A DNA stretch of 64,000 nucleotides from Silicimonas sp. GTDB lineage: Bacteria; Pseudomonadota; Alphaproteobacteria; Rhodobacterales; Rhodobacteraceae. Below are positions 4,338-14,926 of the stretch, piece after piece. Position 1 is the first letter of the stretch. Each line of letters starts with the position of its first letter. The stretch spans positions 62,001 to 126,000 of the forward strand of contig JAJEFO010000043.1 in assembly GCA_022820365.1 (NCBI GenBank), read 5' to 3'. Below the pieces are notes generated by a model, which saw only the letters and a list, made by a program, of their open reading frames with translations, had not been told where the DNA came from and did not search any database. Position numbers and translations under genes: made by a program.

Positions 4338-6260
4338 TCAGGCTGCCCGCGCCAACACGAAGTCATACTCGACGCAATAGGCTGGTGACGGAACCTTTTT
4401 TCCGTCAGGCGCCCGCTGGTCGGTCTTTTCGACAAACGGCATGATCAGGGACTGCTTCACGCCGAACACAGGGTCGCTGTCAAGATGACGGTCGCCATCC
4501 AGGAACAGCATGGTGGTCAGACGCCGGAATCCGGGCGCCTCCACGCGGACATGGACATGAGCCGGTCGCATTATCGACCGATTAGAGACACGAAGCAGGT
4601 CGCCCACGGTGCCGTCGTCCGGGATCGGGTAGCTCTTCGGCAGGATCGAGGTGAACCAGACCCGCCCGTGCGCGTCTGTACGAAAGAGTCCGCGCATCGC
4701 CGGATCCTTCTGCTCCGGCAGCATGATGTCGTAATGGCCGTCATCATCTGAATGCCAGATGTCCACGCGTGCACCGGCGACAGGTTGCCCGTCAGTGTCG
4801 ATGACGCGGGCATTGAAGAACATCGGCTTTCCCTTGATGCCGCCGGAAATGTCCTCGCCGTTCTCGAATGTCGGGCGATCCTCGACGAAGAACGGGCCCA
4901 GCACCGAATTTTCCGTGGCCCCGCTCGGAAACCGGTTGTTGATCAGGTCCACCCGGGCAGTCGCGCCCGTCACGTCGGACAGGAGCACGAATTCCTGCCG
5001 TCCGCCGGTCGAGAGATGGCCGGTCCTGGTCAGGAATTCGATGCCGTATTCCCATTCCCCTTCCGTAGGCTGCACCTCTTCGAGAAATGCGTGGAGATGC
5101 CGCGTGAGGGCGGACAGGACCTGCCGCGCGCGCGGATTGCTGGTGCCCTTCATCGTCGCAAGGACCGCTCCCGTGAGGCTTTCCTCCCGGATGTCGCGCC
5201 CGTGGCCTTCGACGGTTTCGGCTCGCGCATTGCTGTCCGATTCCCTGGACACGGCGTCCGGGTAGTGTTCCATGACGTGCTCGGACGGGGGATTCCCTGG
5301 CCAGCGGATCACGGCCTCCTGAAACGACGGTCGCTCAAACAGGCGCTCGGCGTAGTCGCCGACCCTGTCATGCACAGCGTCGTTCAGCGCGTGACCGCCC
5401 TCCCAGGCAAAGCCCATTCCAAGCCATTTCATGCGCCACAGGCTTGTGGCCCACATGACGTCGGCCATCGTGAAGGCATCGCCGCAAACCCAGTCGCGGC
5501 CGTCTGCAAGACGATCCTCCAGGTCGGCGACGATCTCCAGGATTTCGCCTGTCGCAGCGCGCATCATGTCCGGGGTGGAGACGTAGTGACGGGCGGCGGC
5601 CTCTTTCCGAATCTTGGCGTCGTAAGCCCCGATCAGGCGCGGGTGCCCAACCGAAAGGGAGCGGCCCTCCATCAGCTTCATGATCTTGTAGTCATGTGCG
5701 CCGGCGATGCTGGTCTTGAGCACTTCGGGGCGATAGTCGCCGTCTGGATGCGCACCGTACAGGACCGCGACATGCGGTGTGCCGTCCACGATATCGATTT
5801 CGCGCTCGATCTCGCGTCGCAGGCTGGCCGGCATCAGTTCCGTGCCGCCTTGCCAGGTGCGATCCACGTGCTGACAGATGGCAACGCTGTCTACATGGAC
5901 ATGGCCTTCCTCGTGATCCACCAGGGTGGGCACGGCCGCCGGGTCAAACCCCTCGGAATTCAAGGATGATCGTCCGGTGTAGCCGTCCACCATCTCGCGC
6001 CCCTTGCCGCCCTGCATGCGCAAGCGCACGTAGTCGGGATGATAGTTCTCGAGCACTGGCGGCAGGATGCGGATGTCATGGCTCATGAAGGCTGCACCCT
6101 TCTCGAAGAGGCAGGTGCGCACCTTGTACGAACAAATGGAAAGGGCGAAGTGATAGAGTTCGAATCGCGATGACCCGCTTCCGACCTGCCGATTGCGTTC
6201 GGGGTCGATCAGAGGCGAATTCGCTGCACGGACATATTCGGAGAGGCTTTGATCCGGCAT
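4338..6260 (-). CDS. Fusion protein: N-terminal PcpC-like glutathione S-transferase + C-terminal intradiol (hydroxyquinol 1,2-type) dioxygenase
   Basis: aa ~33-325 GST with LSICSYKVR and FTMADVMW motifs. aa ~358-640 intradiol dioxygenase with ENSVLGPFFVE, DIWHSDDDGHYDI, LPKSYPIPDDG, RPAHVHVRV. One uninterrupted ORF. Confidence 0.85.
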   Translation of the reverse strand: MPDQSLSEYVRAANSPLIDPERNRQVGSGSSRFELYHFALSICSYKVRTCLFEKGAAFMSHDIRILPPVLENYHPDYVRLRMQGGKGREMVDGYTGRSSLNSEGFDPAAVPTLVDHEEGHVHVDSVAICQHVDRTWQGGTELMPASLRREIEREIDIVDGTPHVAVLYGAHPDGDYRPEVLKTSIAGAHDYKIMKLMEGRSLSVGHPRLIGAYDAKIRKEAAARHYVSTPDMMRAATGEILEIVADLEDRLADGRDWVCGDAFTMADVMWATSLWRMKWLGMGFAWEGGHALNDAVHDRVGDYAERLFERPSFQEAVIRWPGNPPSEHVMEHYPDAVSRESDSNARAETVEGHGRDIREESLTGAVLATMKGTSNPRARQVLSALTRHLHAFLEEVQPTEGEWEYGIEFLTRTGHLSTGGRQEFVLLSDVTGATARVDLINNRFPSGATENSVLGPFFVEDRPTFENGEDISGGIKGKPMFFNARVIDTDGQPVAGARVDIWHSDDDGHYDIMLPEQKDPAMRGLFRTDAHGRVWFTSILPKSYPIPDDGTVGDLLRVSNRSIMRPAHVHVRVEAPGFRRLTTMLFLDGDRHLDSDPVFGVKQSLIMPFVEKTDQRAPDGKKVPSPAYCVEYDFVLARAA

Positions 6261-13999: not shown

Positions 14000-14926
14000 A
14001 TGAAACTGGACGCCAAGCATCTTGCGACAATTGAAGTAATTCGTCGCGAAGGGGGACTTACCCGCGCGGCCCTTGCACTTGGCACGTCGCAGCCAGCCCT
14101 TTCCCGGCTGGTATCCGATCTCGAGATTCGCCTTGACGCACCCATCTTCGACCGCTCTGCAAGGCCATGGTCGTTGACGAAACTGGGCGGGTCACTTGCG
14201 TTGCAGGGCGCCTCGATCCTGCGGGCCCAGGAACTTGCCGGCCGCGAGGTTCAGGAATTCCGGTCCGGCACGAAAGGAATGTTGCGCATCGCCGGGCCGC
14301 CGTTCTTCACGGATGGGGTCATTTCGCGCCTCTTGCCGACGTTTCGGGATCGTCATGGAAGCGTGTCCTTCGCGGTTTCGTATGGCTATGGCGGCGAATT
14401 GAAGGACGCTGTTCGCCATGGGCGGGCAGATCTCGCGATCTTTCCGCGCGGCGTGGGCGAGATCGATGAGGACCTTGCCTTTACCCCGCTCATCGAGGCG
14501 CACAATGTCGTTGCGTGCCGGGCGGGACACCCGATTTTGAAACTTGCCTTTCCGCGACCGCTGGCGCTGCTCGACTATGGGTGGATCGTGCCGCCGGAGG
14601 GCAGCCCGCTTGCCGCCGACATGGAAATGGTGCTTTCGGAACTCGAAATGCAGGAAGCTGAAGTGGTGTTTGAAGGAGGGTCGCTGGCCAGCGTTCTGAG
14701 TTTTCTGGAGGGTTCGGACTGCCTGACGGTGCTTCCCGAGACCACCGTCGCCGAGATCGGCAGCCAGTTCGGAATCCAGGCCGTTCCCATTCAGGTCCGC
14801 ACGCCGCGGCGAAGCCTTGGCATTCTCAGTCGGTTTCCGCGCGAACTCGACAACACGAGCCGGACCTTCGTGAGCTTCCTGGAGGAGCACTTCAGTTCTG
14901 ATGGACGCGACGATGTCGGGTCCTGA
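14000..14926 (+). CDS. LysR-family transcriptional regulator
   Basis: N-terminal HTH MKLDAKHLATIEVIRREGGLTRAALALGTSQPALSRLVSDLE; divergent from the MAR operon. Confidence 0.9.
   Translation: MKLDAKHLATIEVIRREGGLTRAALALGTSQPALSRLVSDLEIRLDAPIFDRSARPWSLTKLGGSLALQGASILRAQELAGREVQEFRSGTKGMLRIAGPPFFTDGVISRLLPTFRDRHGSVSFAVSYGYGGELKDAVRHGRADLAIFPRGVGEIDEDLAFTPLIEAHNVVACRAGHPILKLAFPRPLALLDYGWIVPPEGSPLAADMEMVLSELEMQEAEVVFEGGSLASVLSFLEGSDCLTVLPETTVAEIGSQFGIQAVPIQVRTPRRSLGILSRFPRELDNTSRTFVSFLEEHFSSDGRDDVGS

What the first reader, a model, noticed from the sequence alone, without database searches (positions are those of the whole stretch)
4338..14926. Self-contained aromatic/haloaromatic uptake and degradation operon with its own Liv-type transporter
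Minus-strand order: maleylacetate reductase, TAT substrate-binding protein, LivG, LivF, LivH, LivM::TfdB-like hydroxylase, PcpC-like GST::intradiol dioxygenase, with a divergent LysR. Established knowledge: TfdB/PcpB-type hydroxylase, PcpC (glutathione-dependent tetrachlorohydroquinone reductive dehalogenase), hydroxyquinol/chlorocatechol dioxygenase and maleylacetate reductase form the core of chlorophenol degradation. Inference: here all steps plus dedicated import form one coupled unit (junctions overlap by 1-4 nt). Together they could take a (halo)phenol through hydroxyquinol and maleylacetate to beta-ketoadipate. The substrate is unknown; natural halogenated marine phenols are one possibility.
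Basis: partly seen in the sequence, partly recalled or inferred. Interest (0 to 1): 0.88.

Follow-up and report, generated by a model that had tools for sequence, protein, structure and literature searches.

The report
Phenol-degrading operon with permease–hydroxylase fusion
A marine bacterium carries one compact gene set that probably imports a phenol-type compound and breaks its ring, and in it the importer is fused to the first enzyme, a dehalogenase-like enzyme is fused to the ring-opening enzyme, and a membrane-scaffold gene follows, which suggests a physically coupled uptake-and-degradation line.

Summary
The genes are real and at the stated coordinates. The operon is maleylacetate reductase, TAT binding protein, LivG, LivF, LivH, LivM fused to an HbpA/TfdB-type FAD hydroxylase, then a LinD-like glutathione transferase fused to a hydroxyquinol 1,2-dioxygenase, with a divergent LysR.

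Without the GST, the fusions or the flotillin, the order LysR|MAR-SBP-LivGFHM-hydroxylase-hydroxyquinol dioxygenase recurs in many Rhodobacteraceae and on rhizobial plasmids. There it often ends in a beta-keto acid cleavage enzyme. The core is therefore an uptake-plus-hydroxyquinol-pathway operon of a recurrent kind.

What is new is the coupling. LivM::hydroxylase is kept in over 20 divergent protein clusters, has a coding-constrained linker, and arose about four times independently (once as LivM::hydroxylase::dioxygenase). It keeps a ribosome-site-like motif before an internal ATG, so free hydroxylase may also be made. The GST domain is 45% identical to LinD, the 2,5-dichlorohydroquinone dechlorinase, and keeps its cysteine motif.

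Halogenated substrates are plausible but unproven. Verdict: new variant of a known kind; interpretation partly supported.

The parts
14000..14926 (+). LysR-family regulator, divergent from the operon
   Evidence: Pfam HTH_1 + LysR_substrate; orthologue divergent from MAR in most related operons
12852..13919 (-). Maleylacetate reductase (iron-ADH family); TTG start at 13919 after GGGGGAGGAAG
   Evidence: Best solved relatives are maleylacetate reductases 3hl0 (E 3e-120) and 3w5s; start
11487..12797 (-). TAT-exported type-I periplasmic binding protein (HAAT/Liv type)
   Evidence: Peripla_BP_6 + TAT_signal; not close to any solved binding protein (best E 3e-6)
10719..11438 (-). LivG-type ABC ATPase
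   Evidence: ABC_tran + weak BCA_ABC_TP_C
10021..10722 (-). LivF-type ABC ATPase, overlaps LivG by 4 nt
9151..10017 (-). LivH-type permease
   Evidence: BPD_transp_2
6260..9151 (-). LivM permease (aa 1-~340) :: linker (~340-381) :: HbpA/TfdB-class FAD hydroxylase (382-963), one 963-aa ORF
   Evidence: BPD_transp_2 + FAD_binding_3 + Rng_hyd_C; fusion conserved in >20 clusters; linker coding-constrained; AF2 shows two folded parts and a disordered linker
8006..8020 (-). Internal GAGG motif 8 nt before the conserved ATG at 8008: candidate start for free hydroxylase (582 aa)
   Evidence: SD-like motif in 9/9 fused loci vs 29/196 other in-frame ATGs
4338..6260 (-). LinD-like glutathione transferase (aa 1-~335) :: hydroxyquinol 1,2-dioxygenase (aa ~356-640)
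   Evidence: 45% to LinD; 47% to 1tmx with Fe ligands kept; AF2 pLDDT 87 with disordered joint 338-352
2642..4291 (-). Flotillin/SPFH protein, last gene of the unit
   Evidence: Band_7 + Flot; follows GST::HQD in the related loci holding that end; close orthologue only in GST-bearing genomes of a set of 20

Best explanation
This is a LysR-controlled operon for uptake and complete ring degradation of a phenolic compound, most likely a halogenated dihydroxybenzene such as a bromo- or chloro-hydroquinone or -resorcinol. Proposed route (inferred): the TAT-exported binding protein delivers the compound to a LivGFHM-type ABC importer. As it enters, the FAD hydroxylase tethered to the cytoplasmic C-terminus of LivM adds an ortho hydroxyl, giving a (halo)hydroxyquinol. 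The LinD-like glutathione transferase domain removes the halogen reductively with glutathione. The dioxygenase domain of the same chain cleaves hydroxyquinol to maleylacetate, and maleylacetate reductase gives 3-oxoadipate. The operon's own flotillin may gather these parts in a membrane patch. Shown by sequence: gene content, both fusions, catalytic motifs, conserved order, co-occurrence, repeated origin of the permease-hydroxylase fusion. Strongly implied by family: hydroxyquinol -> maleylacetate -> 3-oxoadipate. Inferred: identity of the imported substrate, dehalogenation, channelling, and the scaffold role of the flotillin.
For: Lower pathway: dioxygenase 47% to 1tmx with both Tyr and both His ligands kept; MAR E 3e-120 to 3hl0; a beta-keto acid cleavage enzyme follows the dioxygenase in several sister operons; own genome has a PcaI-type CoA transferase and a BKACE. 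Hydroxylase: 45-46% to HbpA by sequence and fold. GST: 45% over 98% of the domain to LinD with the Ser-x-Cys-Ser motif kept; a catalytic cysteine is what makes the GST-like DrcA a reductive dehalogenase (PMC3205185). Coupling: LivM::HYD fusion in >20 clusters, at least four label changes on the tree, one triple fusion adding the dioxygenase (P0025), linker core variable at codon positions 1/2/3 in 0.26/0.05/1.0 of codons. GST and the close flotillin orthologue occur in the same 4 of 20 genomes and in no others of that set. Two Albidovulum relatives put a two-component HpaB-type phenol monooxygenase upstream of GST::HQD.
Against: No halogenated substrate is shown by any tool; LinD-like GSTs of unknown role occur in other bacteria. 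GST-less operons with the same core exist. The hydroxylase class also covers non-degradative enzymes (PieE, 43%). The SD-like motif before the internal ATG means part or most of the hydroxylase could be made free. The linker is disordered in the model, so no fixed contact between domains is predicted. In L084 the GST::HQD-flotillin pair is divergent from the importer, and in L085 and L088 it lies apart from it.
Confidence: 0.5

Rival explanations
1. The substrate is not halogenated. The operon degrades resorcinol, hydroquinone or a related natural phenol via hydroxyquinol, as the GST-less sister operons presumably do. The GST domain serves a side task, such as reducing quinone-glutathione adducts or protecting the oxygen-sensitive hydroxyquinol.
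For: The same LysR-MAR-SBP-LivGFHM-HYD-HQD core without GST occurs in many Rhodobacteraceae and on Rhizobium plasmids. Hydroxyquinol is the common node of resorcinol and hydroquinone routes (established knowledge). The dioxygenase is 46% identical to Rhodococcus TsdC.
Against: The only characterised near relative of the GST domain found here is a hydroquinone reductive dechlorinase, and its cysteine motif is kept. The GST is fused and conserved in about 50 clusters, so it is not incidental.
Confidence: 0.35
2. The LivM::hydroxylase fusion has no functional meaning of its own. The stop codon was lost, but translation from the internal ATG supplies the working soluble hydroxylase and the fused form is a tolerated by-product.
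For: SD-like motif before the conserved internal start in 9/9 fused loci against 15% of control ATGs. In the cultured relative the deposited protein starts at the internal ATG (P0033, 580 aa), although the DNA is open through LivM.
Against: The frame stays open through about 42 linker codons over 70-100% identity, and the linker core is coding-constrained. The fusion arose about four times, once with the dioxygenase added.
Confidence: 0.2
3. The GST domain is a zeta-like cis-trans isomerase acting on maleylacetate after ring cleavage rather than a dehalogenase acting before it.
For: It is fused to the enzyme that makes maleylacetate. Maleylacetoacetate isomerases of the zeta class have a Ser/Cys motif at the same place and PcpC is thought to derive from them (own knowledge).
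Against: No zeta-class isomerase appears among the named solved relatives at E <= 0.1; they are GDAP1, FzlA, SspA and generic GSTs. LinD matches end to end. The operon's MAR uses maleylacetate directly.
Confidence: 0.08

Closest known systems
Hydroxyquinol-pathway operons with a Liv-type importer (e.g. Rhizobium leguminosarum pRlBT01b, as annotated in the record)
   Same: Same gene order LysR | (HQD) MAR-SBP-LivGFHM-hydroxylase-HQD
   Different: LivM and hydroxylase are separate genes overlapping by 8 nt; no GST; no flotillin
lin genes of Sphingobium (LinD, LinE on pCHQ1)
   Same: GST domain 45% identical to LinD, same cysteine motif
   Different: LinD stands alone near the ring-cleaving LinE; here it is fused to an intradiol hydroxyquinol dioxygenase
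HbpA / TfdB / PieE class-A flavin hydroxylases
   Same: 45-46% to HbpA, 43% to PieE, same fold
   Different: Those are soluble single enzymes; here the enzyme is joined to an importer permease
Chlorophenol pathways through (chloro)hydroxyquinol (tft, tcp, pcp)
   Same: Hydroxylation, dehalogenation, hydroxyquinol-type cleavage and MAR in one gene set (established knowledge)
   Different: Different dehalogenation enzyme or arrangement, no dedicated Liv importer in the operon as far as I know, no such fusions

Membership tests
Hydroxyquinol 1,2-dioxygenase | Dioxygenase_N + Dioxygenase_C and Tyr/Tyr/His/His iron ligands (Y164, Y197, H221, H223 of 1tmx) | tested here: met
   best solved hit 1tmx 47%
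Hydroxyquinol 1,2-dioxygenase | Cleaves hydroxyquinol rather than catechol | not testable with these tools
   Catechol and chlorocatechol equivalog cut-offs are clearly missed, which fits but does not prove it
Maleylacetate reductase | Iron-ADH fold with closest relatives characterised as MAR | tested here: met
   3hl0 and 3w5s are the top two solved relatives
LinD/PcpC-type reductive dehalogenase | Full-length GST similarity and catalytic cysteine motif | tested here: met
   45% over residues 8-330, SICS vs SVCS
LinD/PcpC-type reductive dehalogenase | Glutathione-dependent halide release | not testable with these tools
   Needs an assay
HbpA/TfdB class-A flavin hydroxylase | FAD_binding_3 + Rng_hyd_C, GxGxxG, DG and GD motifs, HbpA H48/W97/D117 (roles from own knowledge) | tested here: met
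Liv/HAAT ABC importer | Binding protein + two BPD_transp_2 permeases + two ATPases | tested here: met
Branched-chain amino acid Liv system proper | Reaches NCBIfam cut-offs for the Liv proteins | tested here: not met
   LivM 103.8 vs 366 bits, LivH 100.6 vs 379, LivF 215.1 vs 441, LivG 152.7 vs 362, binding protein 42.3 vs 477
Flotillin | SPFH/Band_7 plus Flot domain | tested here: met
Flotillin FloT (NCBIfam equivalog) | Reaches the equivalog cut-off | tested here: not met
   50.2 vs 700 bits; sources name relatives YqiK or flotillin

The most novel reading that the evidence does not exclude
A membrane metabolon for aromatics. An ABC importer whose permease carries the first catabolic enzyme on its C-terminus hands the incoming phenol straight to hydroxylation, then to a bifunctional dehalogenase-dioxygenase, on a patch organised by a dedicated flotillin. 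Toxic quinol intermediates then never reach the bulk cytoplasm. The permease-hydroxylase join has evolved about four times.
Probability: 0.28. Interest if true: 0.85.

Novelty: new variant of a known kind. Interest (0 to 1): 0.62.

Why it matters
Fusions between an ABC importer permease and the enzyme that acts on the imported compound are, to my knowledge, not described for aromatic catabolism; searches of the held library found no paper on this set. If the fused form works, it gives a direct test of whether uptake and first catalysis are physically coupled in bacteria. The GST::dioxygenase fusion and the operon flotillin add further testable parts. A named isolate with the whole set appears to exist (G282, contig length 549061, source names Aestuariicoccus sp. 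KMU-90 / Thetidibacter halocola), so experiments are within reach. Sponges make diverse brominated compounds (PMC12203066 abstract), a setting in which a dehalogenating version would make sense.

Tried and rejected
Assembly artefact or frameshift as the cause of the fusions: rejected by recurrence in many independent clusters.

Single origin of LivM::HYD: rejected by the tree, at least four changes forced by well supported branches. Of the rarer fusions, P0026 lies on a 3.1 Mb contig and P0025 on five contigs; P0027 and P0037 rest on single short contigs and could be errors.

Chlorocatechol dioxygenase: rejected by cut-off and by closest relative.

The PDB label '2,4-dichlorophenol 6-monooxygenase' for 6u0p is misleading: the entry is PieE of piericidin biosynthesis, so it does not support a TfdB function. 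The pJP4 record was not held, so TfdB was not compared directly.

Neighbourhood of stand-alone LinD-like GSTs in Alphaproteobacteria: none found at E <= 1e-50 in 296 genomes other than the window's own.

Sigma-70 and terminator scans and Rfam gave nothing above chance.

MAG names of relatives (SB06xx, IRC3, RHO1) suggest sponge samples, but I found no paper in the library that states it.

Full report
WHAT IS THERE. The unit reads MAR (13919-12852), TAT binding protein (12797-11487), LivG (~11438-10719), LivF (10722-10021), LivH (10017-9151), LivM::hydroxylase (9151-6260), GST::dioxygenase (6260-4338). Three junctions overlap by 1-4 nt; three have gaps of 3, about 48 and 54 nt. A flotillin gene (4291-2642) follows 46 nt later behind AAGGAGG and belongs to the unit. 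No promoter, terminator or RNA family stood out.

CHEMISTRY. The dioxygenase domain is 47% identical to hydroxyquinol 1,2-dioxygenase 1tmx and keeps its four iron ligands; it misses the catechol and chlorocatechol cut-offs by a wide margin. MAR matches solved maleylacetate reductases at E 3e-120. The hydroxylase is 45-46% identical to HbpA and 43% to PieE and keeps the HbpA active-site His, Trp and Asp. The class is clear, its substrate is not. The GST domain aligns end to end with LinD at 45% identity with the cysteine motif kept. A catalytic cysteine is what turns a GST-like protein into a reductive dehalogenase in the amoebal enzyme DrcA (PMC3205185). The Liv proteins miss the branched-chain amino acid cut-offs, so the transporter is Liv-type by architecture only.

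THE CORE IS A RECURRENT KIND. Among 298 genomes of the same family, 73 have strong matches to the fusion query (this includes LivM paralogues). Neighbourhoods of about 20 show LysR | MAR-SBP-LivGFHM-hydroxylase-HQD with separate genes in most, and the same on Rhizobium and Sinorhizobium plasmids. In several sister operons a beta-keto acid cleavage enzyme follows the dioxygenase, which fits 3-oxoadipate as the end product. The window's genome has a PcaI-type CoA transferase and a BKACE elsewhere. Kaistia has an MhpA-like hydroxylase in the same kind of operon.

THE FUSIONS ARE REAL AND REPEATED. LivM::hydroxylase occurs in >20 protein clusters at 69-100% identity with a conserved linker start RRRLIGPDTPVPDYT. 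Separate LivM proteins end soon after the same RRRL, so the fusion probably came by reading through the short gap. Across five divergent loci the linker core varies at codon positions 1/2/3 in 26/5/100% of codons, so it is translated and constrained; the rest of the linker is loose. On a tree of 66 hydroxylases the fused state needs at least four changes; one case, P0025, is a 1324-aa LivM::hydroxylase::dioxygenase. P0027 and P0037 are the weakest cases. In all nine fused loci a GAGG/GGAG motif sits before the conserved internal ATG, against 15% of other in-frame ATGs; the nine are related, so this counts as about five independent cases. Free hydroxylase is thus likely made too. GST::dioxygenase recurs in about 50 clusters.

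THE FLOTILLIN. It lies directly after GST::HQD in every related locus that holds that end (L079-L088, L092, and G282 by position), even where the importer is divergent (L084) or elsewhere (L085, L088). Among 20 family genomes the LinD-like GST and the close flotillin orthologue (70-100%) occur in the same four and in no others; paralogues at 50-58% in other genomes are not next to the operon.

STRUCTURE. The LivM::HYD model (pLDDT 73, pTM 0.60) has a membrane part to residue ~334, a disordered linker and a HbpA-like domain. The C-terminal stretch of LivM is rich in Arg, consistent with a cytoplasmic hydroxylase. The GST::HQD model (pLDDT 87) shows two domains and a disordered joint. Neither predicts a fixed interface.

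ORGANISM. A sponge origin is my reading of the bin names only.

HOW IT PROBABLY WORKS. See best explanation. Shown: anatomy, conservation, motifs. Implied by family: hydroxyquinol to 3-oxoadipate. Inferred: substrate, dehalogenation, channelling, scaffold. The LinD similarity and the HpaB-type monooxygenase near GST::HQD in two Albidovulum relatives favour halogenated or otherwise substituted phenols, but GST-less sister operons show that the core does not require them.

VERDICT. Gene set confirmed, interpretation partly supported, new variant of a known kind.

Noticed in passing
L085:3000-4199 and L088:6615-7823: Flavin reductase domain fused to a LysR-type substrate-binding domain, next to an HpaB-type oxygenase; looks like an effector-controlled reductase.
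   Followed up: no
P0210-P0240 (protein ids): A different fusion, intradiol dioxygenase with maleylacetate reductase in one chain of about 650 aa, in many clusters.
   Followed up: no
L111:8755-16980: Hydroxylase plus Liv importer with an HpaD-like extradiol dioxygenase and an FAA hydrolase in place of HQD and MAR.
   Followed up: partly
window 15008-15643: RutR-like TetR regulator beside the LysR, below the RutR cut-off; among the relatives read it is labelled only in L082.
   Followed up: no
window 16740-18383: GMC oxidoreductase overlapping by 4 nt a gene with a weak UDG-superfamily match (15826-16743).
   Followed up: no
window 41218-47851: Histidine utilisation cluster: urocanase, aromatic amino acid lyase (HutH-like), HutF-like amidohydrolase.
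   Followed up: no
window 25952-28443: Mu-type/rve transposase gene in a stretch of raised GC (0.69), a possible insertion.
   Followed up: no
PDB 6u0p/6u0s (not in the window): Molecule name says 2,4-dichlorophenol 6-monooxygenase, but the entry is PieE of piericidin biosynthesis.
   Followed up: yes
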